From contig NZ_CP038439.1 of the NCBI RefSeq assembly GCF_004683865.2, positions 2,110,001 to 2,174,000 on the forward strand: a DNA stretch of 64,000 nt, read 5' to 3'. Origin of the DNA: Paracoccus liaowanqingii. GTDB taxonomy: Bacteria > Pseudomonadota > Alphaproteobacteria > Rhodobacterales > Rhodobacteraceae. The notes under the pieces were generated by a model. That model was not told the DNA's origin and did no database searches. It was given only the letters and a program-made list of their open reading frames with translations. This document shows positions 3,908 to 61,917 of this stretch, one piece after another. Each line of letters starts with the position of its first letter. Positions within the stretch are counted from its first letter, which is position 1. Both the position numbers and the translations under genes were made by a program.

Positions 3908-4507
3908 TCAGACCGCGCCGGCCTCGGCCAGCCGCGCCACATAGCGGGCCAGGGTGTCGATCTCCAGATTGACGGCATCGCCCTCGGCGGCGTCGCCCCA
4001 GGTGGTGACGGTCTGGGTGTGCGGGATCAGGTTGATGCCGAAGCGGCGGCCCTCGACCTCGTTCACGGTCAGCGAGGTGCCGTTCAGCGCCACCGACCCC
4101 TTGGGGGCCACGAAGCGCGCCAGCTCGGCCGGGGCCTCGAAGACCAAGCGCAGGCTGTCGCCCTCGCGCGCGGCGCTGACGATGCGGGCCACGCCGTCGA
4201 CATGGCCGCTGACGATATGGCCGCCCAGCTCGTCACCCACGCGCAGCGCGCGTTCCAGGTTCAGGCGCTGGCCCACCGACCAGCCGGCCGATCCGATGCT
4301 GGTCTTGGACAGGGTCTCGGCCGAGATGTCGACCTCGAACCAGTCCTCGCCCTTGGCGATCACCGTCAGGCAGACGCCGTCGCAGGCGATCGAGGCGCCC
4401 AGGTCCACGCCCGCCATGTCATAGCCGCAGCCGATCCGCGCGCGCATGTCGCCGCGCATCTCGACGCCGCGGACCGTGCCGATATCCGTGATGATGCCCG
4501 TGAACAT
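3908..4507 (-). CDS. ribE: Riboflavin synthase, alpha subunit
   Basis: RibE dismutates two molecules of 6,7-dimethyl-8-ribityllumazine to riboflavin. The 199-residue protein starts with the hallmark MFTGIITDIGTV and shows the internal two-fold repeat of lumazine-binding domains (first with VSGHVDG, second with LNGTSLTVNEVEG). The length is normal for the family. It is the first gene of the minus-strand ribE-X-ribB-ribH-nusB block and is divergent from the capsule gene starting at 4683. The 175-bp gap between them should hold both promoters. Confidence 0.95.
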   Translation of the reverse strand: MFTGIITDIGTVRGVEMRGDMRARIGCGYDMAGVDLGASIACDGVCLTVIAKGEDWFEVDISAETLSKTSIGSAGWSVGQRLNLERALRVGDELGGHIVSGHVDGVARIVSAAREGDSLRLVFEAPAELARFVAPKGSVALNGTSLTVNEVEGRRFGINLIPHTQTVTTWGDAAEGDAVNLEIDTLARYVARLAEAGAV

Positions 4508-4682
4508 GCCCAGCCTTTCCTGCCGTTGGGTCCGAACTAGGCCATCCCCCCTGCCCGTTCAAGCACCAAGCCACCGAAGGCAGGTTAACCCTGATGCACA
4601 AATTTCTGGAACCAAGCGTTCAGACATGGCATGTCGAGGGCAAGGCCCGCCGCTTCCGGCGGATCCGTCTTGCAAGTTGCCC

Positions 4683-6032
4683 ATGTCCCATCACGGCCCC
4701 CTTCCGCTGCAGACCGCACCGCGCCCGTCCAGGGCGGCCGATCCCGCACCTGCCGCGCCGCGGGTCTTCCTGATGCTGCAGGGGCCGCACGGGCCGTTCT
4801 TCGACCGTCTGGCCCGGCTCTTGCGGGCCGCGGGCGCGACCGTCTGGCGCTGCGGCTTCAACGCGGGGGACGAGTTCTTCTGGTCCGACAAGGCCAGCTT
4901 CCTGCGCCACGAGGGCAACGTGCTGGACTGGCCCGAGCGGCTGGAGGCGATCCTGGCCGACAAGGGTGTCACCGACATCGTCCTTTACGGCGACGTGCGC
5001 GCGATCCACGCCACCGCCCGCAGGCTGGCCGACGCGCGCGGCCTGCGCGTCCACGTCTTCGAGGAAGGCTATCTGCGCCCCTACTGGATCAGCTACGAAC
5101 GCCAGGGCTCGAACGGCAACTCGGTGCTGCTGCGCATCCCGCTGGCGCAGATGCGCGCGGCGCTGCGCGAGCAGATCAGCGAGGTGCGCCGCCCCCCCGC
5201 CCATTGGGGCGACATGCGCCAGCACAAGTTCTACGGCGCCTTCTACCACTTCCTGATCCTGATCGCGAACCGCCGCTATCGCGCCTATAGCGGCCATCGC
5301 GCGATCCCGGTCATGCAGGAGTTCCGGCTGAACCTGCGCCGCTTCCTGCTGGCACCGGTCTACAATGTGGCCCGCGCAGCACAATGGCGGCGGCTGCGTC
5401 TGTCGGGCTGGCCCTACAGCCTTGTGCTGATGCAACTGGAACACGATTCGAACTTCCTGGGCCACTCGCCCTTCACCAAGAATGCCCAGTTCGTCGACCT
5501 GGTGGTCGAGGGCTTCGCCCGCTCGGCCCCGCGCCACCACCACCTGGTCTTCAAGGCCCATCCGCTGGAAGACGGGCGCGCGGGCAACCGCCCCGCCATC
5601 CAGGCCGCGGCCGCCAGGCACGGCATCGGCGACCGCGTGCATTACGTCCGCGGCGGCAAGCTGGCCGAGATCCTGTCGCATGCCCGCGCGGTCGTCACCG
5701 TCAATTCGACCGCGGCCCAGCAGGCGCTGTGGCGCGGCATCCCGGTCAAGACCCTGGGCCGGGCGGTCTATGAAAAGCCCGGGCTGGTCTCGGGGCAAAG
5801 CCTGGACGACTTCTTCGCCGCCCCCGAGGCGCCGGACCCGCAGGCCTACCGGGTCTTCCGGAACTACCTGCTGCAGACTAGCCAGATCCCCGGCGGCTTC
5901 TATGCCAGCCGGTCGCGCGCCCATGCGCTGCGTCTGGTGGCCGACATGCTTTTGTCGGAACACGACCCTTACGACGCGCTGGCGTCGGGGCCAATCCTGC
6001 CCCGTCAACAGCTTGCGGACCGAGATCATTGA
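4683..6032 (+). CDS. kpsS: Capsule polysaccharide Kdo transferase, KpsS-like
   Basis: A 449-residue cytoplasmic protein of the Capsule_synth family. In group 2-type capsules KpsS adds the first beta-Kdo to the lysophosphatidylglycerol anchor and KpsC extends the poly-Kdo linker. Visible family features are LMLQGPHGPFFDRLARLL near the N terminus, EEGYLRPYWI, LVFKAHPLEDGRA with the nucleotide-side HP motif, and VVTVNSTAAQQALWRGIPVKTLG near the C terminus. ATG 4683 is the first Met that leaves a normal N terminus. No strong Shine-Dalgarno precedes it, so the start is less sure than the frame. It heads a three-gene capsule module with the OPX gene and kpsC. Confidence 0.88.
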   Translation: MSHHGPLPLQTAPRPSRAADPAPAAPRVFLMLQGPHGPFFDRLARLLRAAGATVWRCGFNAGDEFFWSDKASFLRHEGNVLDWPERLEAILADKGVTDIVLYGDVRAIHATARRLADARGLRVHVFEEGYLRPYWISYERQGSNGNSVLLRIPLAQMRAALREQISEVRRPPAHWGDMRQHKFYGAFYHFLILIANRRYRAYSGHRAIPVMQEFRLNLRRFLLAPVYNVARAAQWRRLRLSGWPYSLVLMQLEHDSNFLGHSPFTKNAQFVDLVVEGFARSAPRHHHLVFKAHPLEDGRAGNRPAIQAAAARHGIGDRVHYVRGGKLAEILSHARAVVTVNSTAAQQALWRGIPVKTLGRAVYEKPGLVSGQSLDDFFAAPEAPDPQAYRVFRNYLLQTSQIPGGFYASRSRAHALRLVADMLLSEHDPYDALASGPILPRQQLADRDH

Positions 6033-6135
6033 AACCTGCCTGCAAGTACTTCTTGGCGCGAGTGGGCAGACCAGTTTAAAACGGCGCGAGAACCGGCCCA
6101 CGACGTCGGAACCAAATAAAACAGGAGTATAAGAG

Positions 6136-7266
6136 GTGACAGTTTCCATTCGGTCGGCGGCCCCCCTGCGGGTGTGCATGATGGCCGCCCTGAGCCTGCT
6201 GGCAGCCTGCGGGCTGCCGCGATCCGGCCCCAACAAGTCCGAAATCTTCGACGGTGCCGTCGAGCGCGGCGGCAACACCCAGGTTATCTATGTCAACGAC
6301 CACGTGACCCGCGCCTCTGCCTTTGCGCCGTCCTATGGCTTCTCCAACAGCTTCCGCAACGCGGGACAGGTGGGCGCCGACGAGATCCGCGCGGGCGACG
6401 TGCTGGGCCTGTCAATCTGGGAAAACGTCGATGACGGCCTGCTGACCTCGCTTGGCGACAGCTCGACCGCTCTGACCGAGATCCAGGTCGACAGCGAAGG
6501 CTTCATCTTCGTGCCCTATGCCGGTCGCGTCCGGGCGGCGGGCAACACCCCCGACCAGCTGCGCCTGCAGATCACCGAGCGCCTGAGCGCGCAGACCCCC
6601 GATCCCCAGGTGACCGTCCAGCGTGTCGCCGGCGACGGCGCGACCGTGTCGGTCGTGGGCCGCGTGGGCGCCCAGGGCGTCTATCCGATCGAGCGTCCGA
6701 CCCGGTCGCTGTCCGCGATGCTGGCGCGCGCCGGCGGCGTGGCGATCGAGCCCGAGGTTGCCGTCGTCACCGTCAAGCGCGGTAATGACAGCGGCCGCAT
6801 CTGGCTGGCCGATCTGTACAGCAGCCCTGGCAACGACATCGCGCTGCGCCCGGGCGACCTGATCCTCGTCGAGGAAGATCAGCGCACCTTCACCGCGCTC
6901 GGTGCGCTTGGCGGGCAGACCCGCGTGCCCCTGGGCAACGAGGTCATCAGTGCCGCCGAGGCCATCGCGATGGTCGGCGGTCTGACCAGCCTTCTGGCCG
7001 ACCCCACGGGCGTCTTCGTGCTGCGCGACGAACCCGAATCGGTCGCCTCGCGCGTGCTGGGCAAGCCGGTCATCGGATCGCAGCGATTCGCCTACGTGCT
7101 GGACCTGACACGCCCGAACGGCCTGTTCCTGGCCCGGGACTTCGTGATCCGCGACGGCGACACCGTCTATGTGACCGAAGCGCCCTACGTCCAGTGGCAG
7201 AAGACCCTGGGTGCCGTCACCGGCAGCGCCGCGACCGCAGACAGCCTGACCAGCATCGCCGAGTAA
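6136..7266 (+). CDS. OPX-family outer-membrane polysaccharide export lipoprotein
   Basis: A 376-residue export protein of the OPX group (Wza/KpsD relatives), which carries capsule across the periplasm and outer membrane. The signal peptide ends in a lipobox, LLAAC, with the lipidated cysteine at residue 25. A polysaccharide export domain follows (about residues 80-165, ADEIRAGDVLGLSIWENVDD), then SLBB-type segments (GRVGAQGVYPIERPTRSL and a second near residue 265). The start is GTG 6136, chosen for the AGGAG at 6123-6127 and the intact signal peptide. The stop is 7 bp before the kpsC ATG, so the two are probably one transcript. Confidence 0.88.
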   Translation: MTVSIRSAAPLRVCMMAALSLLAACGLPRSGPNKSEIFDGAVERGGNTQVIYVNDHVTRASAFAPSYGFSNSFRNAGQVGADEIRAGDVLGLSIWENVDDGLLTSLGDSSTALTEIQVDSEGFIFVPYAGRVRAAGNTPDQLRLQITERLSAQTPDPQVTVQRVAGDGATVSVVGRVGAQGVYPIERPTRSLSAMLARAGGVAIEPEVAVVTVKRGNDSGRIWLADLYSSPGNDIALRPGDLILVEEDQRTFTALGALGGQTRVPLGNEVISAAEAIAMVGGLTSLLADPTGVFVLRDEPESVASRVLGKPVIGSQRFAYVLDLTRPNGLFLARDFVIRDGDTVYVTEAPYVQWQKTLGAVTGSAATADSLTSIAE

Positions 7267-7273
7267 TTCCTGG

Positions 7274-9277
7274 ATGCAGGCCAATGACCTCTCAGCCGCC
7301 GGGACCCCCCGGCGGCTTTGCATATTCAACCTCGGATTCCTCAGGCGGCCGCGCATCGCGCGCATCCTGACGCTGGCCGGATATCGGCCCGTCCTGGCCC
7401 TGCCCCGCCCGGGCGACGCGGTGGGGATCTGGGGTGCCAGCCCGACTGCCTGGCGCGGCCAGGCCATCGCCGCGCGGCGCGGCAGCCCCCTCGTCACCGT
7501 CGAGGATACCTTCCTGCGCTCGGTCCTGCCGGGCCGGGCGCCGGGCCGTCTGGCCACGCGCGGTCCCCTGGGCCTGCTGATCGACCCCGACGGGCTGCAT
7601 TTCGACCCCACCCGCCCCTCGCGGCTGGAACGGCTGGCGGGCCAGCCCCTGCCGCCGGGCATGGCCGAACGCGCCGTGCGGCTGCTGGCGCGGATGCGGG
7701 CGGCGGATCTGTCCAAGTACAACCTGCACGACCCGGCGCGGGAGGTCCCGCCCGCCGGCTACGTGCTGGTCATCGACCAGACGCGCGGTGACGCCTCGCT
7801 GCAGGGCGAGGGGCGCGCGCGCTTCCTGACCATGCTGGAGGCCGCGCGCGACGAGCATCCGGGCCGCCCCATCCTGATCCGCAGCCATCCCGAGACCGCC
7901 GCCGGGCTGCGCCCCGGCCATCTGACCTCCGCCGACCTGCGCCCCGGCGACGGGTTCAGCGACACCCCCGTCTCGCCTTGGCGGCTGGTCGAGGGGGCCG
8001 AGGCGGTCTATGCCGTCAGCTCTCAGCTGGGCTACGAGGCGCTTCTGGCCGGGCACCGCCCGCGCCTCTTCGGGCGTCCCTTCTACGCAGGCTGGGGCCT
8101 CAGCGACGACGAGGTGCCCCTGCCCCCGGGCCGCCGGGGCACGGCCACGCGCGAGGCGCTGTTCACCGCCAGCCACATCACCGGGCCGGTCTGGTACGAC
8201 CCCTGCCGCGACCGGCTGACCGATCTGGAGGGCGCGCTGGGCCAGCTGGAGGCCGAGACCCGCGTCTTTCGCCAGGACCGCGACGGCCATGTGGCCCTTG
8301 GCATGCGGCTGTGGAAGCGCCGCTTCCTGTCGCGCGAGTTCGGGGATTCCAAGCCCCTGCGCTTTGCCGCCAAGCCCGAGCCTGCGGTCACCCTGGCCTG
8401 GGCCAGCGCCGCCGAGGCCGCCCCGCAGGCGATCCGGGTCGAGGACGGGTTCCTGCGCTCGCGTGGGCTGGGAGCGGCGCTGACCCCGCCGCTGTCGGTG
8501 GTCGCGGACGATCTGGGCATCTACTTCGACCCCACCGCGCCCTCGCGGCTGGAACAGCTGATCGCGCTTGGCCCGCCCCCCTGCGGGCGCGACCGCGCGC
8601 AGCGGCTGATCGCGGCGCTGATCGCGGCGCGGCTGACCAAGTACAACCTTGGCGGCGCCGCCGACCTGCCACCCCGCGACGGCCGCCGCCGCATCCTGGT
8701 GCCGGGCCAGGTCGAGGATGACGCCTCGATCCGCAAGGGCGCGGGGGCCGAGCGGACGAACCTGGCCCTGCTGGCCCGCGTGCGTGCCGACAATCCCGAC
8801 GCCTGCGTGATCTACAAGCCCCATCCCGATGTGGAGGCGGGCCTGCGCCCCGGCCTGATCGCGGCCGGGGATCTGTCGCGCCTGGCCGATCACGTGGCCG
8901 GGCAGGCCGATCCGGTGGCACTGATCGCGGCGGTGGACGAGGTCTGGACCATCACCTCGACCCTGGGGTTCGAGGCGCTGCTGCGCGGCACCCCGGTGAC
9001 CGTGCTGGGGGCGCCCTTCTATGCGGGCTGGGGGCTGACTCGGGATCTGGGGCCGATCCCGGGGCGGCGGCGGGCGCGGCCCGATCTGGCGGCGCTGGTG
9101 CATGCCTGCCTGATCGCCTATCCGCGCTATCGCGACCCGGTGACGGGCCTGCCCTGCCCGGTCGAGCTGGCGCTGGAGCGTCTGGCGGCGGGCGAGGTCA
9201 GCCACCCCCCGGCGCTGCGGCTGCTGGCCAAGGCGCAGGGCGCACTGGCGGGCCATGCCTGGATCTGGCGGCGCTAG
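7274..9277 (+). CDS. kpsC: Capsule beta-Kdo transferase KpsC, two-module
   Basis: A 667-residue protein with two homologous glycosyltransferase modules (about residues 15-335 and 340-660). In characterised KpsC proteins the modules are retaining beta-Kdo transferases (GT99/GT107 type) that build the poly-Kdo linker. Each module shows the same motifs: SKYNL then TKYNL, VIDQTRGDAS then PGQVEDDAS, RSHPE then KPHPD, and SSQLGYEALL then TSTLGFEALL followed by FYAGWGL. The gene follows the OPX gene by 7 bp. It runs tail-to-tail into ribD with a 4-bp overlap, so no room is left for a terminator between them. Confidence 0.93.
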   Translation: MQANDLSAAGTPRRLCIFNLGFLRRPRIARILTLAGYRPVLALPRPGDAVGIWGASPTAWRGQAIAARRGSPLVTVEDTFLRSVLPGRAPGRLATRGPLGLLIDPDGLHFDPTRPSRLERLAGQPLPPGMAERAVRLLARMRAADLSKYNLHDPAREVPPAGYVLVIDQTRGDASLQGEGRARFLTMLEAARDEHPGRPILIRSHPETAAGLRPGHLTSADLRPGDGFSDTPVSPWRLVEGAEAVYAVSSQLGYEALLAGHRPRLFGRPFYAGWGLSDDEVPLPPGRRGTATREALFTASHITGPVWYDPCRDRLTDLEGALGQLEAETRVFRQDRDGHVALGMRLWKRRFLSREFGDSKPLRFAAKPEPAVTLAWASAAEAAPQAIRVEDGFLRSRGLGAALTPPLSVVADDLGIYFDPTAPSRLEQLIALGPPPCGRDRAQRLIAALIAARLTKYNLGGAADLPPRDGRRRILVPGQVEDDASIRKGAGAERTNLALLARVRADNPDACVIYKPHPDVEAGLRPGLIAAGDLSRLADHVAGQADPVALIAAVDEVWTITSTLGFEALLRGTPVTVLGAPFYAGWGLTRDLGPIPGRRRARPDLAALVHACLIAYPRYRDPVTGLPCPVELALERLAAGEVSHPPALRLLAKAQGALAGHAWIWRR

Positions 9278-34018: not shown

Positions 34019-34852
34019 TCATGCCGCCAGCCGGTCCTTGGCGAGGGCATCGAAGGCCCGCAGATCGGCGATCAGCGCCGCCATCTGCTCGATGGGGATC
34101 ATGTTGGGGCCGTCCGAGGGCGCGCGGTCGGGGTCCTCGTGGGTCTCGATGAACAGCGCCGAGACACCGACCGCACAGGCGGCACGGGCAAGCACCGGTG
34201 CGAATTCCCGCTGGCCGCCCGACGAGCCGCCCAGGCCGCCGGGCTGCTGCACCGAATGTGTGGCGTCGAAAACCACGGGCCAGCCGGTCCGCGCCATCGT
34301 GGGCAGACCCCGGAAATCGGTCACCAGGGTGTTGTATCCGAACGAGGTGCCGCGCTCGCACAGCATGATGTTGCGGTTGCCGGTCGATTCGAGCTTGGCC
34401 GCGACATGCACCATGTCCCAGGGGGCCAGGAACTGCCCCTTCTTGACGTTGATCGCCCGTCCCGTTTCCCCCGCCGCAAGCAGAAGATCGGTCTGCCGGC
34501 ACAGGAAGGCCGGAATCTGCAGCACGTCGCAGACCTCGGCGGCCACGGCGCAGTGGGCGGCCTCGTGGACGTCGGTCAACACCGGCACGCCGAACTCGGC
34601 CTTGATGTCGCCCAGGATCTGCAGACCCTTTTCCACGCCAAGCCCGCGCTGGCCCGAGAGCGAGGACCGGTTGGCCTTGTCGTAGCTTGCCTTGAAGATG
34701 AAGCGGGTGCCGGTCGGTGCGCAGGCTTCGGCGATCTTCTCGACCATCATCCGGGCATGGTCGCGGCTTTCCAGCTGGCACGGCCCGAGGATCAGCGAGA
34801 TGGGGTTCGCGCCTCCGATGCGGAGATCGCCGATGTTTACGATATGGGACAT
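34019..34852 (-). CDS. kdsA: 3-deoxy-8-phosphooctulonate synthase (Kdo-8-P synthase)
   Basis: A 277-residue enzyme joining arabinose 5-phosphate and phosphoenolpyruvate to Kdo-8-phosphate. Motifs are [44 protein letters not shown] and [15 protein letters not shown]. The [11 protein letters not shown] stretch with the cysteine suggests the metal-dependent class. AAGGA lies 8 bases before ATG 34852. It is the last gene of a minus-strand Kdo/capsule locus that begins with kdsD. Confidence 0.95.
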
Positions 34853-34989
34853 GCGCTTCATCCTTGCAGTCATGTGAGAGGGCCGCAGCGGACCGGGTCG
34901 GCTGCCTCTATCGGTGGGGTTGCAGGACAGGTCAAGCCGATCACGCCGAAACGGCGCTGCCGGGACCGCATTTGCGTGCGGCCGGCCCT

Positions 34990-36069
34990 CTAGAAGAGGC
35001 GCCGCTTGATGCGGTCGATCAGCGAATACAGGTAAAGCCCGCGCTGATAGCCGGGGCGCCGCAGGTCCGTCGCATCATGCCCTGCATCGGTCCAATCCAG
35101 CGCGGCCGCGATGCGGCGCCGGATGGCGGGGACATCGTCGGCGCGGAGACAGTAGTCCGTCAGATACCAGAACAGGAAGCGGTCGCGCCACCCTGCATCC
35201 GGCGGCGCGGGTGCGGCAATGGCCCGGGCCAGATCGGCATGGTTCCGCACCTGCTGCGTGACCGGGGCGAAATCCGATGCCGCATAGCTGACGACCGGCT
35301 TGCCCTGGACCAAAGCCTCGAAAAGGACGCCGGAATTGGCACCCACCACCAGTGCCGCCCCCTCGATCAGGCGATGGATCGATCGGGTCGAGACGGCGAC
35401 CTGCGGTCGACGCGACAGGTCCTCCAGCAGGCTGGCCATGCGGGCGCTGGTGCAGCGTGGGTGGCGCTTGATGACGGTGCGCAATCCGCAAGCGGAGGCG
35501 GCACGGATCACCGTGAGCAGAGCCTCGCCCGGGTCGAGGAAGGCCCCCTTTGCAACCGAGTCGTTCAGCACCTGCAGGGGTACGAAGACGTAGCCGGCCT
35601 CTTCGGGCGCGTCCACCGGATCGGGCTGGGGATATTTGGATCGGTTGTGACGGCGAAGGTCCTGCGAGAGGGTCTCGCGGAAGCGGGTCGCCGCCCCCTG
35701 ATCTTTTGCGGCGATCGCCGCCTGGAACAGCTCGGGCTGCGTCGCAAGCTGCGAAAAGCAGGCATAGCCCATCGGGTCGAGGCTGTAGAAGGGCGGGATA
35801 TAGGATTCCTTGCAGCGGAGCAGGTTCCCCGCCGCATCGCCGTAAGAGTGGAAGCTGATGATCAGGTCCGACCGGTCGGCGCCGGGGCGCGGCGCGCGTT
35901 CGGCCCCCCGCGGCAGCCAGACCGGGTCGATCAGAAGCCCCAGTTCCGCCAGAGCCGCCAGCGTCGAGGTATAGAACATCCGGTGCCGGTCGCCATCGCT
36001 CGGATTGGCGAACCAGGCTTCGGGAACCTCCAGGATCACTCGCCGCCTGCCCGACCCGCCAGTGCCCAT
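34990..36069 (-). CDS. Capsule-type glycosyltransferase-like protein
   Basis: A 359-residue cytoplasmic protein with a Capsule_synth-like C-terminal half. Motifs parallel those of KpsC/Kps[13 protein letters not shown] (donor-side strand), TVIKRHPRC (HP motif) and [23 protein letters not shown] (the S-x-x-x-EAL block). The N-terminal half starts [15 protein letters not shown] and is not recognised. The stop lies 137 bp before the kdsA start, and 6 bp separate its ATG from the stop of the large upstream gene. I infer a transferase acting in the same polysaccharide pathway; donor and acceptor are unknown. Confidence 0.7.
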
Positions 36070-36075
36070 GTCCCG

Positions 36076-39000
36076 CTATCCGCGCCGCACCAGCGGCGCC
36101 AGACCGCGTAGATACGTCTTCAGGATCCTGCGCGGACCACCCGGTTTGGCGGTCGAATAGGCCAGCCACCGCAGCTTCGGATGGCGCCCCGTCCAATGCG
36201 CGCGGGCAAACGCGGTCGGATCGCTGCGCAGGTCATTGGCCAGATCCGGTCTGCCGCGCAGGCGGTAGGCCTTTGCCAGGAGCGGGATCGAGGACCACAG
36301 CCGCCAGTTCAAGGGGCCGTAATTGGCCAGGCGCCGCGCCTTCGATTTGGGCTGTTGCTGGACGGCATCGGCATAGGCGGTCTCGACGATGCGGAACTCG
36401 GACAGGTGCAGCGGACATTCGGCAGGCGGCTGCGCGCGCGGCAGGAACAGGCTGCCGGCGTCCAGGCCGAAATAGTCCCGCGCGATCCGGCCGTTCCCCG
36501 AGGCGGCCCTGTCCATGATCCGGTCGGCGGTCTCTTCCGACAGCAGCCAGGGGGCCGGCATGGGCAGGCCGTTCGCGTGCCGCCATTCGGTCAGCCGCGA
36601 GGCTGCCGTCTCGACGAAGCTCAGATAGGCGTTCTTGCTTGGAAACTTCCGCTTGTTGAACAGGCGGATCAGCTCGACATGGGTGCCCGAGAGCCGCGCC
36701 TCGTTGGCCTTGATGCGGGACGGCGCCGGCAGAGCCGTGATCTGCGCCAGTCCCGTCGCGCTTGCGAAATCCCGGACGATCTCCCAGTCCGATCCGGGTT
36801 GGCGAAGATAGCGGCGCACATGGATCGACTGTCGAGGCAGAAGCTGCTCCCAGCTGCGGATCAGCTTGTCATAGTCGAGGAATGTCTTGGTCTCGGGCGT
36901 TCCCAGCCATTTGTCAAAGGATTGCGACGTGGAATTGATGGCGCCGCCCGCCACGAATTCGGCATATTGCGAATTGGCCCATTCGTCCTGGCGTCGCAGA
37001 TAGACGACCATCTCGACATCGAAACCGCTGAAATGCGTGGCCAGTGCCGCGGAATTCCGGCTGAGGAAGAAGGCCTCCGACGACAGGACGATCGTATGGA
37101 TCCGCCCCGGCATCAACGCCAGCCCCTGCAGCAGATGCTGGCGCAGGCTCTGCCCGTTCTTCATGGCTTCGGCCATGAAGCGGGAATGCCCGGCCTGCTT
37201 GTGGGGCCGGTTGAGTTGCCAGAACAGCCCGACCTCGGGATACCAGACCCCGTCGCGCAGCAGGGCGGGACGATTGTCCTCCAGCAGATGCTGCAGCGCG
37301 GTGCTGCCGGTCTTGGTCGCCCCCAGATGGATGATCAGGCGCGGGCGCGTCGCGGGGGTTGCCATGGCCTCCGGCGACGGGTCCGCCGCGACCCGCTCGT
37401 TACGGGCATAGACGTTCAGCGCCTCCTGCAGATGCTGCTGGGCAGGGGTTTCGGGCAGACGCAGATATTCGGCATAAAGATCGGCGGCGGCGATCGGCTC
37501 CAGGGCCAGGGCAGTCTCGATCAGGTCGGCCCGCTGCAGTCGGGTGGCCGCCAGAAGAAGACCATAGGCGCCGGCCTGAAGATGCGGGCGCGACAGCTGC
37601 GAGGGATCGGGGATCAGGTCGCGCGGCCCCATGTCGCTGCGCTCCAGCGTGGCAGCCAGCCTGTCGAGGAACCGCGCCGTCCCCTTCTCTGCCTTCGCCG
37701 TTTTCCAGGCGAAGCCGAAATACAGGTAGTGCATGAACTGCGAGACCTGGAACCGGGCCAGCCACGCATGCGGCGAGGCGGGGTCCAGCGCGCCATGCTG
37801 CTGCAGATGGGTGATGACCAGATCGAAATTGTGCAGCTGGTCGTCGACATCCGTCATGGTCTGCGCGCGCCGGACCGCGCTGTCCTGACGAATGCGGTAG
37901 ACGACGCCGTCGCTGTCGCAGATCGAGATCCGCGGATCCGCCATGTAGGCCTGCAGCAGGAAGGCGCGTTCCTCGCGATAGGTGGTCAGGAAGCGGACGT
38001 CATGTCGGGCCAGGAAATCGCGGCGATAGAGCCAGTTCCAGAAATGCCGGGAATGGGCGATCTGCGGATGGCTGGCCACGCTGACGCCGCGCATCTCGTC
38101 CGGGAAGAAGGCTTCGGTCGCATCCGGGCGCATCTGCAGCAGGACGCCGTCCGCATCCTCGACCTGCTCGCGGCGCTTGCGATAGCGGACCATGTCGGCC
38201 TGGTCCTCGTCGGCCATGGTCACGATCCGCCCCAGATGGTCGGCATCGGGCATGTAGTCGTCGGGATCGATGAACAGGACATAGCGCCCGCGCGCAACCT
38301 CCACGCCCTGATTGCGGGCGAAGCCGGGTCCGATATTCTCGGTGCGCCGGATCAGCCGGATGCGCGGATCCCGCGCGGCGTAGCCTTCGGCGATCTCGGC
38401 CGAGCGGTCCGGGCTGACATCATCGATCAGGATCACCTCGAAATCCTGGAATGTCTGCTTCTGAATCGAGATGAGGCATTCGGCCAGATAGTTCTCGACC
38501 CCGTGGACCGGAATGATGATCGAGATGGCCGGCTCGGCCGAAACGACCCTGGGGATAGGGCGGACGGGGCGATGCTGCTCGATGAAGTCCAGCACATCCT
38601 CGATCCGGGCCGGCACCGGACCCTCGGGCAGGTGATAGATCGTGTACCAGATGTAGAATGCGTGGAACAGTTCGGCCAGATCGCGCCTGCGATGACGGTG
38701 AGGCACCTCGGTCCGGTCATCCGTCAGACCCCAGCCCGCATAGGACGGCGCACCGAAGCAGACCACCTGCTTGCCAGCCAGAAGCGCCTCGAGCCCCATG
38801 CCGGAGGTGCCGACATAGACCTTGTCGACCAGATCGAACAGTTCGAACGGGTTGACGCTGTCGCGGACCATCCGCACCCGCCCCGAGGACGTCATCCGGT
38901 CGAAGTAGCCCCGCCGGGTGCCCCCCTTGACCCAGTTCAGGTCGGGATGCGTCTTGACCAGGATCTCGGCATCGGGATTCTCGGCGATGGCTGCCTGCAG

Positions 39001-39765
39001 CATCGCCTGAAAGTCCGTCTCGCTGGCGCGCCCGTAGAAGGTCGACGCATCCGAGAAGTTCTGGTCCACGACCAGCACGCGGCGGGCATAGCCGGGCGAC
39101 ACGGCAGGCCGGTAGAAGGGCTGGGAATTGTATTTCGAGATGCCGGCCTCGACGATCCGGCGCATGGCACGTTCGGCCCGGTCGCGTTCGGCCGGCGACA
39201 GTTCGAAATCGCCATTCAGCTTCTCGTCCAGCCGGGTTTCGTAATCCGACATGTAGTATTGCGCGCGGTCGTCGAAGATGTAGCCCAGGCAGGCCTGCTG
39301 CGGGCTGCGCGACGCCAGCGCTTCGGACCAGCTGGTGGTCGAGGCGAGAAAGCCCATCTCGAAGAACGTGACCGAATCGGTCGGCCGGACATGGGGCAGC
39401 AGGGCCTTGGTGCTGTCATGGGATTTGGACAGGTCATCCAGAACCGCCCCGTACATCAGCACCGGCGCATCGCCGTCGATCTCGGGATCGTCGATGGCGA
39501 TCAGGTTCGGGAAGACGCGCGACAGGTTGGCCGAAAACGCCGTCTGCAGGTTGCTGCGCTGAAAGCCGATCCGGTGGGGCCGTTCGCGACGGGCCCAGAG
39601 CGACTGACGGAAATCGGCCTCTGCCCCTTCCGCCCCGTCGGGATGGGATCGGTCCAGCAGCTGCAGGAACTGACGGTGAAGCTCTCCTCCCACGGGGGTC
39701 GCCTTGGGCATCCCGCGCAGGGTCTTCCGGCTGTCCTTCGGCGTCGTCGTCATGGGCATGGCCAC
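36076..39765 (-). CDS. Three-domain capsule protein: KpsC-like Kdo-transferase module, GT2 glycosyltransferase and sulfotransferase-like domain
   Basis: A 1229-residue protein. Residues 1 to about 400 match one KpsC module: ISKYNSQ (209-215), VLVVDQNFSDAS, ILVKTHPD (268-275), VGTSGMGLEALLAGKQ and APSYAGWGLTDD. Residues 413 to about 660 are a GT-A GT2 domain: ISIIIPVHGVENYLAECL, VILIDDVSPDRS and FIDPDDYMP (the DxD-type site, 499-506). Residues 808 to about 1100 look like a PAPS-dependent sulfotransferase: PRLIIHLGATKTGSTALQHL holds the 5'-phosphosulfate loop. A tail of about 130 residues follows. The ATG at 39765 has alternatives at M3 and M5. Adding Kdo, another sugar and sulfate to one chain is inferred from domain content only. 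Confidence 0.82.
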   Translation of the reverse strand: MAMPMTTTPKDSRKTLRGMPKATPVGGELHRQFLQLLDRSHPDGAEGAEADFRQSLWARRERPHRIGFQRSNLQTAFSANLSRVFPNLIAIDDPEIDGDAPVLMYGAVLDDLSKSHDSTKALLPHVRPTDSVTFFEMGFLASTTSWSEALASRSPQQACLGYIFDDRAQYYMSDYETRLDEKLNGDFELSPAERDRAERAMRRIVEAGISKYNSQPFYRPAVSPGYARRVLVVDQNFSDASTFYGRASETDFQAMLQAAIAENPDAEILVKTHPDLNWVKGGTRRGYFDRMTSSGRVRMVRDSVNPFELFDLVDKVYVGTSGMGLEALLAGKQVVCFGAPSYAGWGLTDDRTEVPHRHRRRDLAELFHAFYIWYTIYHLPEGPVPARIEDVLDFIEQHRPVRPIPRVVSAEPAISIIIPVHGVENYLAECLISIQKQTFQDFEVILIDDVSPDRSAEIAEGYAARDPRIRLIRRTENIGPGFARNQGVEVARGRYVLFIDPDDYMPDADHLGRIVTMADEDQADMVRYRKRREQVEDADGVLLQMRPDATEAFFPDEMRGVSVASHPQIAHSRHFWNWLYRRDFLARHDVRFLTTYREERAFLLQAYMADPRISICDSDGVVYRIRQDSAVRRAQTMTDVDDQLHNFDLVITHLQQHGALDPASPHAWLARFQVSQFMHYLYFGFAWKTAKAEKGTARFLDRLAATLERSDMGPRDLIPDPSQLSRPHLQAGAYGLLLAATRLQRADLIETALALEPIAAADLYAEYLRLPETPAQQHLQEALNVYARNERVAADPSPEAMATPATRPRLIIHLGATKTGSTALQHLLEDNRPALLRDGVWYPEVGLFWQLNRPHKQAGHSRFMAEAMKNGQSLRQHLLQGLALMPGRIHTIVLSSEAFFLSRNSAALATHFSGFDVEMVVYLRRQDEWANSQYAEFVAGGAINSTSQSFDKWLGTPETKTFLDYDKLIRSWEQLLPRQSIHVRRYLRQPGSDWEIVRDFASATGLAQITALPAPSRIKANEARLSGTHVELIRLFNKRKFPSKNAYLSFVETAASRLTEWRHANGLPMPAPWLLSEETADRIMDRAASGNGRIARDYFGLDAGSLFLPRAQPPAECPLHLSEFRIVETAYADAVQQQPKSKARRLANYGPLNWRLWSSIPLLAKAYRLRGRPDLANDLRSDPTAFARAHWTGRHPKLRWLAYSTAKPGGPRRILKTYLRGLAPLVRRG

Positions 39766-39850: not shown

Positions 39851-40963
39851 TCAGGACGGTAGTCCCGGTGGGCCGCCCTGATCGTCGGTTTCCGTCAGCA
39901 CGCCGATCAATCCTCCCGGCCCCGCAGGCGAGGAGGCCTCCGCATCCTCGTCCCGCCTGCTCCAGGCCATCGTGTGCTGAACGATCGGCCTTCCCCGGAC
40001 GCTGGCGTGAAGCGTGACGACCAGATCGCCCGTGGCGACCAGCGGCGGTGACTGGGGCGACCAGAGCAGCAGATGCTTGAGCTGCCGAGGGGGGCCGCTT
40101 TCGCGGGAACTGATCCGGGTGGAATAAGGGCCGCGACTGTCCCTGCCCGCCCGGAAGGAAATGGCGGGACCGGACGGGGACGAGATCAGGAAGCAGGCCA
40201 GAAGCCGGCCCGTCAGGGGCACATGCAGGTCCTGTCGCAGCGGAAACATGTCGCAGGACAGGATGCGGTTGGCGAACGGCACCGGCGCGACGTTCTGCGG
40301 GGCGACGATCCGCAGGTCCTTGCCCGCGAAGGTCGAAGGATCGGGACGCGGCACCCGGGCGGATGCCGCATGGGTCAGTGCGGCCCGGGCCAGGGCCGCC
40401 GGAAATCCGGTATCGGTCGCATAGTGGGGGTTGTCGCGGTACAGCTGCGCGACCGGCAGATGCGCGAAGTCGCGTTTCCACAGCGCCTGCGCATCCAGGG
40501 CGGCAAGCCCGCGCCGGGCCAGCAGATCGGCCAGCAGCGCGCGATAGGGACTCTCTTCGTCCCCGGCGGCCTCGGCCCGGTTGTACAGCAGGACGGGAAG
40601 CACCCGGATCTGGCGCCGGGCGCAGATCTCGAACAGCCAGGACGTATGGTGCATCAGCAGCTCTGCCGTCTGACCATGCGCCAGGTAATTCGATTCGTTC
40701 AGCGAATATTCCCAGAAGATGACGGAGCCGGGCGGCAGATCGGAGGCGCCAAGCAGCCGGAAAAGCCCCATTGCCGTGGTGGCGGCCCCGATGCTCAGAT
40801 TGAGGACCCCCGCCGGATCCGGATGCAGCTGCTTCAGCTGATCCACCCACCCGTCGCGCAACAGCGAGTTCGATCCCCCGATGACCACCACGGGAGGCGC
40901 GTCACGAACAGGCGCAAGCGGACCCGATGGGCGATGTGAGACATTCAGACTGATCAGAGACAT
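39851..40963 (-). CDS. SGNH-hydrolase-like protein of the capsule locus
   Basis: A 370-residue protein with SGNH/GDSL features: VVVIGGSNSLL (serine block), LNLSIGAATT (glycine block), YSLNES (asparagine block) and DNPHY in the place of the terminal D-x-x-H. No signal peptide is seen. The C-terminal 150 residues look beta-rich and unrelated. Such proteins often add or remove acetyl groups on surface sugars; that role is inferred. AAGG lies just before ATG 40963, which is preferred over the longer frame. It lies between kdsD and the large three-domain gene, all on the minus strand. Confidence 0.7.
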   Translation of the reverse strand: MSLISLNVSHRPSGPLAPVRDAPPVVVIGGSNSLLRDGWVDQLKQLHPDPAGVLNLSIGAATTAMGLFRLLGASDLPPGSVIFWEYSLNESNYLAHGQTAELLMHHTSWLFEICARRQIRVLPVLLYNRAEAAGDEESPYRALLADLLARRGLAALDAQALWKRDFAHLPVAQLYRDNPHYATDTGFPAALARAALTHAASARVPRPDPSTFAGKDLRIVAPQNVAPVPFANRILSCDMFPLRQDLHVPLTGRLLACFLISSPSGPAISFRAGRDSRGPYSTRISSRESGPPRQLKHLLLWSPQSPPLVATGDLVVTLHASVRGRPIVQHTMAWSRRDEDAEASSPAGPGGLIGVLTETDDQGGPPGLPS

Positions 40964-41181
40964 CCCGGACCTTGTGCAATGCGATCCGGCATGTCGCCGG
41001 ATCATGGCAATCCCGCATCGGCCGGTGGCGACAATCGCCCGCTCGATACCGACCATGGAATGGCGGCCGGATCAACCCTGGCGCGACCCGACTGCCAGAA
41101 GGCCGCAGATCCCCGATCGGATGGTTTCCCCCTAGGGGACCCTCCGATCACAGGATAACCGCCGCGCCAGGCCTCGCGACT

Positions 41182-42177
41182 TCAGGCGATCCCGGCCCGC
41201 AGGCAATCGTGGATATGCAGAATGCCCACGGGCCTTTCGTCGTGATCCACGGCGAAAAGCGCGCTGATCTTGTGCGCGTTCATGATCGCCAGCGCCTCGG
41301 CGGCAAGCGTCTCCGGGGTCACGGTCACAGGCTGGCGGGTGCAGACCTGACCGGCCTGACGTTCGATCAGCCCGACCATGTTGCGCCGCAGGTCGCCATC
41401 CGAGATCACGCCGTGCAGTCTGCCGGCGGCATCGGTGACGCCGACGATGCCGAAGCCATGGGCGCTCATTTCCAGGATCGCCTCGCTCATCGGCGTGTCG
41501 ATGCGGGCCAGCGGCAGCTTGGCCGGACCGTGCATCAGCTGGATGACGCGCGACAGTCTTGCGCCCAGCTTGCCGCCGGGGTGAAAGACGTGGAATTCGT
41601 CGGACTGGAACCCCCGCGCCTCCATCAGCGCCACGGCCAGCGCATCGCCCAGGCCAAGCGTCAGGGTGGTCGAGGTGGTGGGCGCCATGCCGATCGAGCA
41701 GACCTCGGGAAGGTCGGGCAAGGTCAGGCGCAGGTCCGCGGCCCGCATCAGCGTGCTGTCCGGACGCTTCGAGATCCCGATCAGGGTCACGCTGAAGCGG
41801 GCGCAATGGGCGATGAGGTCCGACAGCTCTGCCGTTTCGCCCGAGTTCGAGATCAGGATGCAGATGTCGCTTGGCGTGACCATGCCAAGGTCGCCATGGC
41901 TGGCCTCTGCCGGATGGACGAAGAAGGACGGCGTCCCGGTCGAGGCCAGCGTCGCCGCGATCTTGCGTCCGATATGGCCGGACTTGCCCATACCCGACAC
42001 GATGATGCGGCCGGTCGTGGCCAGGATCTTCTCGACGGCCGCGTCGAAATCGACGGGCAGGGATTCGGCGAAGCGACTAAGCGCCTCACCCTCCTGACGC
42101 AGCACGCGCGCGGCCGTGCCCGTCGCAGAGAAGGATGCAGGGAAATGGGCAGCCCTAAGTTCCGAGGATATGGTCAC
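41182..42177 (-). CDS. kdsD: Arabinose 5-phosphate isomerase KdsD/KpsF
   Basis: A 331-residue isomerase that makes arabinose 5-phosphate, the first step to Kdo. An N-terminal SIS domain has IIVSGMGKSGHIGRKIA, ASHGDLGMV and LISNSGETAELSD. Two CBS domains follow (from about residue 205), the second with RPVGILHIHDCLRAG. As KpsF it is typically linked to capsule loci. It is the first gene of the minus-strand block and is separated from the SGNH gene by 218 bp. Confidence 0.95.
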   Translation of the reverse strand: MTISSELRAAHFPASFSATGTAARVLRQEGEALSRFAESLPVDFDAAVEKILATTGRIIVSGMGKSGHIGRKIAATLASTGTPSFFVHPAEASHGDLGMVTPSDICILISNSGETAELSDLIAHCARFSVTLIGISKRPDSTLMRAADLRLTLPDLPEVCSIGMAPTTSTTLTLGLGDALAVALMEARGFQSDEFHVFHPGGKLGARLSRVIQLMHGPAKLPLARIDTPMSEAILEMSAHGFGIVGVTDAAGRLHGVISDGDLRRNMVGLIERQAGQVCTRQPVTVTPETLAAEALAIMNAHKISALFAVDHDERPVGILHIHDCLRAGIA

Positions 42178-42446
42178 GCAGTCCCTGCCTTCCTTACGTC
42201 GTTTCGACGCGCGTAATCTAATTTGGGCCCGAGGTCACGGGGGTAACGCCAATTGTTCGCGCTTGGTGTCCATCCCGCCATCCGCCAGGTGGGGTCCAAG
42301 CCGTTTTCGGACGGGACCTGCAGGGGAAAGTCCCGCTGCGGGGACCAGAGGCGGGCAGTGGCGCGATCCACATAGACTTCGGAGAGCTGCCGACCGCGAA
42401 GCGCTGGCGCCAGAGACCCTGTCCGTGTCATTGGCGCCACGCGGCA
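42178..42446. other. 269-bp gap between kdsD and the repeat copy
   Basis: Should contain the kdsD promoter. No gene is recognised. Just before the repeat, in frame with the regulator fragment, it reads GATRQVLT, the same eight residues that occur at 309-316 of the intact regulator, but with different third codon bases. Confidence 0.4.
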
Positions 42447-42636
42447 GGTGCTGACCGAGGCCGAGGTGCAGGCCATGGCGCGGGCCAACATCCTGAACGC
42501 CCTGCGCGAGACGCGGGGAAAGGTCGCAGGTGCCGGGGGCGCGGCCATCCTGCTGGGCATTCCGGCCACCACATTGTACTCCCGCATGGCCAAGCTGGCG
42601 ATCCGCGAGGCGGAATGGACGGTCCCCGGCGGCTGA
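42447..42636 (+). pseudogene. 3' fragment of the NtrC-like regulator gene
   Basis: The last 62 codons and stop of the regulator encoded whole at 53415-55277, with the Fis-type helix-turn-helix (ILNALRETRGKVAGAGGAAI and LLGIPATTLYSRMAKL). The AAA+ and sensor domains are absent. It has an in-frame GTG and ATGs, but no ribosome site, so it is probably an untranslated relic. Confidence 0.88.
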
Positions 42637-42938
42637 AGGATGGGAAGATGACACTGTTGCTGCCCCGGCGCATCGGCTACAGCCGCTCCGAGACCGTCTC
42701 GGACCTTCTCGTGCACGCGATCGGCTTGGGCGCGGCCCTGCTGGCGGTCCCGATCCTCATCTCGCGGACATGGTCCCTGGGCGGCGAGGCATCGGCCCTC
42801 GTGGGCGTGTCGGTCTATGGCGCGACGCTGATTGGGATGATCCTGTGCTCGGCGCTCTACAACATGCGGCATCCGGACGCCTGGAGCCCGGTCCTGCGGC
42901 GGCTGGACCATGCCGCGATCTATCTCAAGATCGCGGGC
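42447..42938 (+). repeat. Left copy of a 492-bp direct repeat
   Basis: Identical to 55088-55579 except for five base differences that I could see (about 99%). It covers the last 62 codons of the regulator gene and the first 97 codons of the hemolysin-III gene. The two copies are in the same orientation, 12,641 bp apart. Confidence 0.95.
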
Positions 42939-43304
42939 ACCTACACGGCCTTCGCGCTTCTCTCGCCCTATCCGACCGGCTGGTTCCTCGTCTGGATCTG
43001 GAGCTGCGCGGCCCTGGGCGTCGGACTTCGCACCATCGCGCCGGACCGCTGGCGCGGCATGGCGATCGGGCTCTATCTCGTCATGGGATGGTCGGGCGCC
43101 GTCGCGGGCGGCGCGCTCTTTGGCGAGATGTCGTCGCGGGTCTTCGCGCTGATCCTGGGCGGAGGGATCCTCTACACCGCGGGCTTCGCCTTCTTCGTGT
43201 CGCCGCGCCTGCGGTTCCACCGCACGATCTGGCATCTCTTCGTCGTCGTCGCGAGCGCCGTCTTCTACACCGCCGTCGCCACGCATGTCGCGGCACGCGC
43301 CTGA
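42648..43304 (+). CDS. Hemolysin III family protein (intact copy)
   Basis: A 218-residue membrane protein of the HlyIII/PAQR-like family with seven hydrophobic helices. Family motifs are GYSRSETVSDLLVHAIGLG, SALYNMRHP and LRRLDHAAIYLKIAGTYTAF (the H and D residues are the metal-site candidates) and RFHRTIWHLFVVVAS with a histidine near the end. Its cellular role is unknown. A GGA-rich site precedes ATG 42648. Its first 291 bp are repeated at 55289-55579. Confidence 0.88.
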   Translation: MTLLLPRRIGYSRSETVSDLLVHAIGLGAALLAVPILISRTWSLGGEASALVGVSVYGATLIGMILCSALYNMRHPDAWSPVLRRLDHAAIYLKIAGTYTAFALLSPYPTGWFLVWIWSCAALGVGLRTIAPDRWRGMAIGLYLVMGWSGAVAGGALFGEMSSRVFALILGGGILYTAGFAFFVSPRLRFHRTIWHLFVVVASAVFYTAVATHVAARA

Positions 43305-53414: not shown

Positions 53415-55277
53415 ATGGATGACGACATTGATTCCCTCCTCGGCCACCTGCCCCTTGCCGCGCTAATCCTGGACACGCAGCAGGATCGGATCGCGTGGGC
53501 TAACAGGGCGGCCGCGCAGCTTCTGACCCTGTCCCGCCCTTCCGGTGCCCGCTTCTCGACCCTTCTGGGCCGGGCGCTGCCGAAATTCATCGTCTTCGCC
53601 GACGAGGTCGCGCATCGGGGTCAGGCCTGGGCGCGCGACATCCCCCTGTCGGACGCCCGGGACCAGCCCCTGACGGTCGAGCTGCGCGCCACCCCCCTGC
53701 CCGGCCGGCCCGGACATCTGCTGCTGACGCTGCTGGATCTGCGCGAATTGGACCTGCGGGCCGAAGCCGCCGAGGCGGCGCAGACCTTCCGGTCCGGCCT
53801 GATGGAATGGAAGCACGCGCAGGCCTTCTTCGCCGATCTGGAACGCCAGAACCAGCTGATCCTGAATGCCGCAGGCGAGGGGATCTATGGCGTCAATGCC
53901 GAGGGCAAGACCACCTTCCTGAACCGCGCCGCGCAGGAAATGCTGGGCTGGACCGCCGCCGACCTGCTGGGTCGCGACATCCATTCGGTGATCCATCACC
54001 ATCACCTGAACGGCGACCATTATCCCGCCCATGACTGCCCGATCTATCGCAGCTTCCGTTTCGAGCAGATCCACCGGATCGAGGACGAGGTCTTCTGGCG
54101 CAAGGACGGCCGCCCGATCCGGGTCGAATATGTCTCGACGCCCATCTACGACCACAAGGTGCTGGCGGGCGCAGTGGTGATCTTTCGCGACATCACCGAA
54201 CGCTACGAGAACGAACGGCGGCTGCGCGAGGCGCTGGATCAGGTCGATGCGCTGCGCGACCGGCTGGAGCAGGAGAACGCCTATCTGCAGGAAGCGATCA
54301 CCAGCGAGCGCGCGCATCATGACATCATCGGCGGGTCGGGGGCGACACGGCAGGTGCTGACCCGCATCGCGCTGGTGGCGCCGACCGATGCGCCGGTCAT
54401 GATCACCGGCGAGGCGGGCACGGGCAAGGCGCTGGTGGCCACCGCGATCCACAAGGACAGCCCCCGCCAGCGCCGACCGCTGATCGCCTTCAAGTGCAGC
54501 GCCCATGCCCCCGACATGATCGAGGCCGAGCTGTTCGGCCAGATGCGCAGCCATCAGCTGGGCACGCAGCGCGACCGCCCCGGCAAGCTGGAGCTGGCCC
54601 ATGGCGGCACGCTGTTCCTGGACGATCTGGCCGAGATGCCGCTGGAGCTGCAGGGCCGCCTGCTGCATGCGCTGCAGACCGCGCAGGTCACCCGGCTTGG
54701 CGATCTGCGCGCGCGGCCATTGGACATCCGCGCGATCGCCGCCCTGACCCGCCCCCCCGAGGTCGAGATCGACGCGGGCCGCCTGCGCGACGATCTGGCG
54801 CTGTTCCTCAACGTCTTTCCCATCCAGTGCCGCCCGCTGCGCGACCGCCCCGAGGACATCCCGCCCCTGACCGATCACCTGCTTGGTCTGGCCTGCAAGC
54901 GGATGAACCGCCCCTGCCCCCTCGTCTCGACCCGCACGATGCAGCGTCTGCTGGCCTATGACTGGCCCGGCAATGTCCGCGAACTGGGCAATGTCATCGA
55001 ACGCGCGGTGATCCTGTCCACCGGCCATGACAAGCTGGTCCTGGACATGGGTGAGGAGGCCGCGCCCCTGCCCGCAACGGGGCGCGCGGTGCTGACCGAG
55101 GCCGAGGTGCAGGCCATGGCGCGGGCCAACATCCTGAACGCCCTGCGCGAGACGCGGGGAAAGGTCGCAGGTGCCGGGGGCGCGGCCATCCTGCTGGGCA
55201 TTCCGGCCACCACATTGTACTCCCGCATGGCCAAGCTGGCGATCCGCGAGGCGGAATGGACGGTCCCCGGCGGCTGA
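53415..55277 (+). CDS. PAS-containing NtrC-like AAA+ regulator lacking the GAFTGA loop
   Basis: A 620-residue activator. An N-terminal PAS-like segment (about 1-110), a second PAS (about 145-262, with VFWRKDGRPIRVEYVSTPIY) and a short coiled coil precede an AAA+ domain (about 303-540). Walker A is GEAGTGKA (332-339) and Walker B is GTLFLDDL (398-405). Where sigma-54 activators carry GAFTGA this protein reads MRSHQLGTQRDR (377-388), so the loop that contacts sigma-54 is missing. The C-terminal Fis-type helix-turn-helix is intact. Divergence from the cyn operon makes it the likely cyanate-responsive regulator, though the signal is unknown. Confidence 0.85.
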   Translation: MDDDIDSLLGHLPLAALILDTQQDRIAWANRAAAQLLTLSRPSGARFSTLLGRALPKFIVFADEVAHRGQAWARDIPLSDARDQPLTVELRATPLPGRPGHLLLTLLDLRELDLRAEAAEAAQTFRSGLMEWKHAQAFFADLERQNQLILNAAGEGIYGVNAEGKTTFLNRAAQEMLGWTAADLLGRDIHSVIHHHHLNGDHYPAHDCPIYRSFRFEQIHRIEDEVFWRKDGRPIRVEYVSTPIYDHKVLAGAVVIFRDITERYENERRLREALDQVDALRDRLEQENAYLQEAITSERAHHDIIGGSGATRQVLTRIALVAPTDAPVMITGEAGTGKALVATAIHKDSPRQRRPLIAFKCSAHAPDMIEAELFGQMRSHQLGTQRDRPGKLELAHGGTLFLDDLAEMPLELQGRLLHALQTAQVTRLGDLRARPLDIRAIAALTRPPEVEIDAGRLRDDLALFLNVFPIQCRPLRDRPEDIPPLTDHLLGLACKRMNRPCPLVSTRTMQRLLAYDWPGNVRELGNVIERAVILSTGHDKLVLDMGEEAAPLPATGRAVLTEAEVQAMARANILNALRETRGKVAGAGGAAILLGIPATTLYSRMAKLAIREAEWTVPGG

Positions 55278-55579
55278 AGGATGGGAAGATGACACTGTTG
55301 CTGCCCCGGCGCATCGGCTACAGCCGCTCCGAGACCGTCTCGGACCTTCTCGTGCACGCGATCGGCTTGGGCGCGGCCCTGCTGGCGGTCCCGATCCTCA
55401 TCTCGCGGACATGGTCCCTGGGCGGCGAGGCATCGGCCCTCGTGGGCGTGTCGGTCTATGGCGCGACGCTGATCGGGATGATCCTGTGCTCGGCGCTCTA
55501 CAACATGAAGCATCCGGATGCCTGGAGCCCTGTCCTGCGGCGGCTGGACCATGCCGCGATCTATCTCAAGATCGCGGGC
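55088..55579 (+). repeat. Right copy of the 492-bp direct repeat
   Basis: Matches 42447-42938 with five differences. It covers the end of the intact regulator gene and the first part of the truncated hemolysin-III gene, and stops where IS3-type sequence begins. Confidence 0.95.
55289..55579 (+). pseudogene. 5' fragment of a hemolysin III gene, cut by IS sequence
   Basis: The first 97 codons match the intact gene at 42648 (MTLLLPRRIGYSRSETVSDL through YLKIAG). Then the frame runs into unrelated sequence ending at a stop near 55889. Helices four to seven are lost, so no functional protein is expected. Confidence 0.9.
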
Positions 55580-55847: not shown

Positions 55848-55965
55848 TGAGAACGGCGGTGCAAAAATCGGCCACGGTAGCGGCGGGATGACCCTGCTGC
55901 GGGCGGCGTAAAAGTCGTCCGCCTTTACCCTTTCTGGCGACAGGGAGGGCGGGAGGATTTTCACC

Positions 55966-61913: not shown

Positions 61914-61917
61914 GGTC

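What the first reader, a model, noticed from the sequence alone, without database searches (positions are those of the whole stretch)
36076..39765. One protein joining a Kdo-transferase module, a GT2 glycosyltransferase and a sulfotransferase-like domain
The sequence shows one uninterrupted 1229-residue frame with KpsC-type motifs (ISKYNSQ, KTHPD, YAGWGL), a GT2 core (IIPVHG, DPDDYM) and a PAPS-loop-like ATKTGSTALQ. Each family is known; I have not met this triple fusion. It suggests that a Kdo backbone, another sugar and a sulfate are added by one polypeptide, i.e. a sulfated Kdo-containing capsule.
Basis: partly seen in the sequence, partly recalled or inferred. Interest (0 to 1): 0.72.

Follow-up and report, generated by a model that had tools for sequence, protein, structure and literature searches.

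The report
Three-in-one enzyme for sulfated capsule sugar
One bacterial gene joins a Kdo-adding enzyme, a second sugar-adding enzyme and a sulfate-adding enzyme in a single protein; the same fusion is found in other bacteria and predicts a sulfated, Kdo-containing surface coat that has yet to be shown.

The parts
36076..39765 (-). the triple-module gene, 1229 aa
38563..39579 (-). module 1 (residues 63-401): retaining beta-Kdo transferase, KpsC-N/GT107-like
39049..39063 (-). QXXXD motif, Q235-D239; D239 aligns with the KpsC nucleophile Asp160
37408..38532 (-). module 2 (residues 412-786): GT2 glycosyltransferase with TarS/TarP-like helical extension
38257..38268 (-). DPDD (D500-D503), DxD-type motif of the GT2 module
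   Evidence: D500, D502, D503 in 120 of 120
36436..37365 (-). module 3 (residues 801-1110): PAPS-dependent sulfotransferase fold
37300..37314 (-). KTGST loop (K818-T822), PAPS 5'-phosphosulfate loop (role recalled)
   Evidence: K818 in 120 of 120
36970..36996 (-). 3'-phosphate binding motif R924...S932 (role recalled)
   Evidence: R924 120 of 120, S932 98 of 120 (Ala in 22)
36079..36408 (-). helical C-terminal tail (residues 1120-1229), unknown role
34990..36069 (-). 359-aa protein, distant KpsC relative with SKY, QXXXD (QVLND) and HP motifs: likely second retaining Kdo-type transferase
   Evidence: 6mgc E 2.9e-5; beside the triple gene in 13 of 17 stretches (window included), and on the Cereibacter plasmid (68% id)
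34019..34873 (-). kdsA, Kdo-8-phosphate synthase (one of two copies in the genome)
39851..41056 (-). 401-aa protein of unknown family (GGSNSLL motif; SGNH-like by recall only), in 6 of 17 stretches (window included)
41182..42177 (-). kdsD/kpsF, arabinose-5-phosphate isomerase family
4446..6032 (+). KpsS-like Kdo transferase of the general capsule locus
6136..7266 (+). polysaccharide export (OPX-type) protein
7274..9277 (+). canonical two-module KpsC

Best explanation
A single-polypeptide capsule polymerase with a built-in sulfotransferase. Module 1 uses CMP-beta-Kdo and a covalent Asp239-Kdo intermediate (double displacement, as in KpsC) to add beta-Kdo; module 2 uses a nucleotide hexose, by inversion, to add the alternating sugar, giving a [hexose-beta-Kdo]n chain on the KpsS/KpsC phospholipid-Kdo anchor; module 3 uses PAPS to sulfate the growing chain, probably on the hexose; export is by the Kps system. 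Shown by computation: the three folds, the catalytic residues, conservation as a unit, Kdo-supply genes beside it, PAPS and Kps genes in the genome. Inferred: that it polymerises, the alternation, the hexose, the sulfation site, and that the anchor is the acceptor.
Confidence: 0.55

Rival explanations
1. Terminator/cap enzyme: the GT2 (or other enzymes) builds the chain and the Kdo module adds one terminal Kdo that ends it, as in WbbB; sulfate marks the end.
For: WbbB's N-terminal module adds a terminal beta-Kdo to an O-antigen (start of abstract of PMC9587256 seen; its other modules are recalled). The acceptor side of module 1 differs from KpsC.
Against: Extra kdsD/kdsA (and kdsB in some relatives) beside the fusion point to bulk Kdo use; a second Kdo-transferase-like gene could do the capping.
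Confidence: 0.15
2. Decoration enzyme: a poly-Kdo chain (from the 359-aa protein or KpsC) is the backbone, and the triple enzyme extends it by Kdo, adds hexose side branches (TarS-like) and sulfates them.
For: Nearest GT2 folds are TarS/TarP/RmlT, recalled as polymer-decorating; poly-Kdo capsules exist (S. meliloti 1021).
Against: Reverse-order GT2-GT107 fusions and KrkA fit alternating backbone synthesis at least as well.
Confidence: 0.17
3. Linker ('transition') enzyme: it makes a short Kdo-hexose-sulfate junction between the anchor and a polymer made by other genes.
For: Transition transferases exist in capsule systems (PMC11666461 passages); other polymerase genes in this genome were not searched for.
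Against: No second GT2-type gene was recognised among the five genes of the locus; extra Kdo-supply genes would hardly be needed for a short linker.
Confidence: 0.08
4. Module 3 has the sulfotransferase fold but is inactive or acts on another substrate, so the product is unsulfated.
For: The Ser932 position is Ala in 22 of 120; a fold does not prove a function.
Against: K818, E897, R924, H860 in 120 of 120; PAPS synthesis and CysQ present; the window protein keeps Ser932.
Confidence: 0.05

Closest known systems
KpsC (GT107), Escherichia coli and Thermosulfurimonas dismutans
   Different: One module instead of two, on a separate tree branch from KpsC-N and KpsC-C, fused to GT2 and sulfotransferase; Arg45 site not kept
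KrkA (E. coli K13, GT140 + ribosyltransferase)
   Different: Other Kdo family (GT140), other second module (PRPP ribosyltransferase + phosphatase), no sulfotransferase described
TarS / TarP / RmlT teichoic acid glycosyltransferases
   Different: 15-22% identity; recalled as decorating wall teichoic acid in Gram-positives
NDST1 sulfotransferase domain, heparan sulfate 3-O-sulfotransferases, bacterial sulfotransferase 3rnl
   Different: 12-16% identity; NDST1 carries a deacetylase, not Kdo or hexose transferases
Rhizobial K-antigens (S. fredii USDA205, USDA257)
   Same: Hexose-beta-Kdo disaccharide repeats of a group-2-like capsule
   Different: No sulfate in the part of the table seen; polymerase not named in the passages read
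GT2-sulfotransferase didomain proteins (L077, L078; genomes of the window's taxonomic family)
   Same: GT2 followed by a relative of the same sulfotransferase domain in one frame
   Different: No Kdo-transferase module found

Membership tests
GT107 (KpsC-type retaining beta-Kdo transferase), module 1 | sequence and fold similarity to KpsC modules | tested here: met
GT107 (KpsC-type retaining beta-Kdo transferase), module 1 | QXXXD nucleophile motif, general-base Glu, HP CMP motif, active-site Lys | tested here: met
   E136 118; K211, Q235, D239, H273, P274 119 of 120, the rest gaps; 21 of 21
GT107 (KpsC-type retaining beta-Kdo transferase), module 1 | basic residue at the KpsC Arg45 site | tested here: not met
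   I or V in 19 of 21 triples; weakly aligned region; the carboxylate-binding residue comes from different places in the GT99, GT107 and GT140 structures, and 2 of 19 KpsC-N lack it too
GT107 (KpsC-type retaining beta-Kdo transferase), module 1 | Kdo transfer from CMP-Kdo with retention | not testable with these tools
   needs an enzyme assay
KpsC proper (two-module linker synthase) | two tandem Kdo transferase modules | tested here: not met
   one module only; a separate canonical KpsC is at 7274-9277
GT2 | GT-A fold with DxD-type motif | tested here: met
PAPS-dependent sulfotransferase, module 3 | fold | tested here: met
PAPS-dependent sulfotransferase, module 3 | 5'-loop Lys and 3'-phosphate Arg/Ser motifs (motif roles recalled) | tested here: met
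   K818, R924 120 of 120; S932 98 of 120, Ala in 22
PAPS-dependent sulfotransferase, module 3 | match to a curated sulfotransferase profile (Pfam, NCBIfam) | tested here: inconclusive
   no such match for module 3 itself; of 10 related proteins scanned, 4 have sulfotransferase hits, all below cut-off; a profile of 19 sequences hits 3rnl at E 1e-6, over the middle part only
PAPS-dependent sulfotransferase, module 3 | sulfate transfer from PAPS | not testable with these tools
   needs an enzyme assay
Sulfated capsule pathway | PAPS synthesis and PAP removal in the genome | tested here: met
   NF004040 1020 bits (cut-off 669); CysQ TIGR01331 264 bits (cut-off 229)
Group 2 / ABC-transporter capsule | KpsS, KpsC, KpsE, OPX protein present | tested here: met
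   PF05159 over cut-off for KpsS and KpsC, Poly_export for the OPX protein; KpsS, OPX and KpsE NCBIfam hits are below the model cut-offs
Group 2 / ABC-transporter capsule | KpsM and KpsT | not tested
   not searched

The most novel reading that the evidence does not exclude
A single bacterial polypeptide polymerises a Kdo-hexose capsule and sulfates it as it grows, so that chain building and sulfation are coupled by architecture (in animals, as recalled, heparan sulfate is built and sulfated by separate enzymes); it would found a class of sulfating capsule polymerases that moves between bacteria, also on plasmids.
Probability: 0.4. Interest if true: 0.78.

Novelty: new variant of a known kind. 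Interest (0 to 1): 0.6.

Why it matters
Kdo is a backbone sugar of many capsules, yet the abstract of the 2026 KrkA paper says that the responsible enzymes had not been investigated before it. This family offers a different, self-contained candidate and ties Kdo polymer synthesis to sulfation in one protein. If right, it predicts from sequence which bacteria make sulfated Kdo polysaccharides, and gives an enzyme that can be tested in a tube with known donors. It also exposes an annotation gap: about 300 residues with a sulfotransferase fold carry no Pfam or NCBIfam label.

Tried and rejected
Assembly error or chance frame: rejected (119 of the 120 best relatives complete; P0031 of 945 aa is the exception; 97% identical relative). 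Note that the search only considers proteins of 0.55-1.75 times the query's length and lists the best 120 of 325. Module 3 as Tim17 (E 0.002, 5e-4, below cut-off): rejected by the fold match. The first C-terminal query began at residue 825 and so missed the PAPS loop; its 14 hits served only as alignment rows (11 of them in A1) and. In the profile search the next hits after 3rnl are mitochondrial ribosomal S15 chains (E 0.011-0.4), judged chance; other sulfotransferases follow from E 0.37. Expectation that the GT2-linked Kdo module is a close copy of KpsC-N: the tree instead puts triple, solo and reverse-order modules on one side of a branch and all KpsC modules on the other (SH-aLRT 99; quick method, long branches, the window's own KpsC-N flagged as long). 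Profile search of the 401-aa neighbour found only Fc-receptor and other weak hits (best E 0.0028), judged chance. Literature: seven searches gave no paper on this fusion; the library holds open-access papers only, no preprints. In Cobetia (PMC11766843 section 8) the sulfated capsule is ascribed to separate sulfotransferase genes.

Full report
OBSERVATION. The frame 36076-39765 on the minus strand is open over 1229 residues. Pfam reports PF05159 (Capsule_synth) at 222-370 and PF00535 (GT2) at 415-585, and nothing above cut-off beyond; NCBIfam gives GT2-type and one capsule-type hit, all below cut-off (25 of 29 shown). A phmmer search of solved structures gives KpsC N-terminal modules (6mgb, E 2.9e-45, residues 159-394) and GT2 enzymes.

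NOT AN ARTEFACT. A search of 5.8 billion proteins, limited to proteins of 0.55-1.75 times the query's length, gave 325 relatives, the best 120 listed. By alignment, 119 of these 120 carry all three modules; the exception is P0031, 945 aa. The best, from Paracoccus liaowanqingii, is 97% identical over the full length. In one-per-species genomes, 15 of 20 loci encode the fusion, in Paracoccus, Pseudoruegeria, Loktanella, Tateyamaria, Roseivivax, Maritimibacter and Limimaricola; one of them is cut by its contig end, and the other 5 loci match only the GT2 part. Names add Sinorhizobium terangae, Mycoplana, Alloalcanivorax, Microbulbifer, Lamprobacter, Parvularcula and a Myxococcota bin. Names given by sources are mostly 'glycosyltransferase' or 'capsular polysaccharide export protein'; many entries have none.

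OTHER ARCHITECTURES. Among the 253 proteins from three searches (plus four from the window), module searches gave 122 with Kdo + GT2 + sulfotransferase matches, 112 with the Kdo module alone (mostly KpsC-sized), four with GT2 before the Kdo module (P0167, P0195, P0208, P0227), and a few partial forms. The searches were seeded with the window protein, so these numbers are not frequencies. P0136 (839 aa, 85-kb contig) ends inside module 3.

NEIGHBOURHOOD. In the window the gene stands with kdsA, a 359-aa protein, a 401-aa protein and kdsD/kpsF on one strand. Of 19 stretches compared, 17 hold the triple gene, window included (L059 has none, L060 a solo module). Of these 17, the 359-aa family is in 13, kdsD in 7, kdsA in 5, kdsB in 5 and the 401-aa family in 6; several stretches are cut by contig ends. 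The kdsB name was confirmed in all 5, kdsA and kdsD in two relatives each. On a Cereibacter plasmid the gene stands, among several transposase genes, with kpsF, UDP-galactopyranose mutase and, next to it, a 359-aa-family protein of 68% identity. Qingshengfaniella has two copies on a plasmid, with no kds gene named in the 31.6 kb of annotation read. The 359-aa family matches KpsC weakly (E 2.9e-5) and keeps SKY, QXXXD and HP, so it is probably a second retaining Kdo-type transferase.

THE GENOME. It encodes a second KdsA beside a KpsE-family protein, KdsB between CysQ and a GalU-like protein, and a bifunctional sulfate adenylyltransferase/APS kinase. So CMP-Kdo and PAPS can both be made, and the kdsA of the window is an extra copy. 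KpsS, an OPX protein and a canonical KpsC lie at 4446-9277, about 25 kb from the fusion. KpsM/KpsT were not searched.

DISTRIBUTION. In the genus, 11 of 125 genomes (own included) have the sulfotransferase domain at 47% identity or more inside an open frame of over 1250 aa, two of them twice (the rest of those frames was not aligned one by one). In a sample of the family (about one genome per genus) 2 of 149 have a full-length match; in samples of class and phylum only the window's own genome, 1 of 289 and 1 of 398. In some searches at most four candidates a genome were scored. Of 72,556 plasmid records, 2 hold at least 80% of it. This is the pattern of a horizontally moved capsule cassette. 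GC3 of the five locus genes is 0.79-0.87 against 0.85-0.95 for most genes in the first 33 kb of the window, which fits but is weak.

HOW IT LIKELY WORKS. Precedents: KrkA, one protein with Kdo and ribosyl transfer, reported as consistent with sole responsibility for the K13 repeat (PMC12887879, abstract and sections 4 and 13); E. coli K-types in which GT99/GT107-like domains correlate with Kdo in the repeat (PMC13171606 passages); S. fredii K-antigens with hexose-beta-Kdo disaccharide repeats (PMC4881576 passages and part of table 1). Fusions in the reverse order suggest that GT2 and Kdo transfer are coupled. I therefore favour an alternating Kdo/hexose polymerase that sulfates its own chain. 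Rivals (terminator, side-chain decorator, linker enzyme, inactive module 3) are listed with what would refute each.

NOVELTY. Each module belongs to a known fold family; the triple architecture, as a conserved family often beside Kdo-supply genes, was not found in the papers searched (open-access library only). Hence: new variant of a known kind.

Noticed in passing
window 42441-42938 and 55082-55579: A direct repeat of about 499 bp, 98.6% identical, holding the start of a haemolysin-III gene: complete at 42615-43304, truncated frame at 55256-55891 just before a transposase/IstB (IS21-type) pair at 55966-58214. The first copy lies right beside the capsule locus.
   Followed up: partly
window 61527-63582: Phage terminase large subunit (TerL ATPase and nuclease, 61870-63582) and a small frame before it: probably the edge of a prophage.
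   Followed up: no
P0167, P0195, P0208, P0227: Proteins of 728-772 aa with the GT2 at the N-terminus and a GT107-like Kdo module at the C-terminus: reverse order of the fusion; the base-Glu column is Gly in 3 of 4 in my alignment.
   Followed up: partly
L077:253-2646 (+), L078:367-2634 (+): GT2-sulfotransferase didomain proteins (798 and 756 aa) in two genomes of the same taxonomic family, without the Kdo module.
   Followed up: partly
window 34990-36069: The 359-aa family is a very divergent KpsC-like protein that usually accompanies the fusion gene; one distant match exists elsewhere in the genome. Its role is unknown.
   Followed up: partly
window 36079-36408 (residues 1120-1229): Helical tail found by BLAST in about half of the fusion proteins; at least three relatives (P0007, P0008, P0020) carry some 30 further residues that the window protein lacks.
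   Followed up: no
L058 (G094:C2:70000-89999): Between and beside the two fusion genes of Qingshengfaniella lie a solo Kdo-module frame (with a stop in the longer alignment) and a 105-residue piece of the module, on the other strand: apparently remnants of further copies.
   Followed up: no
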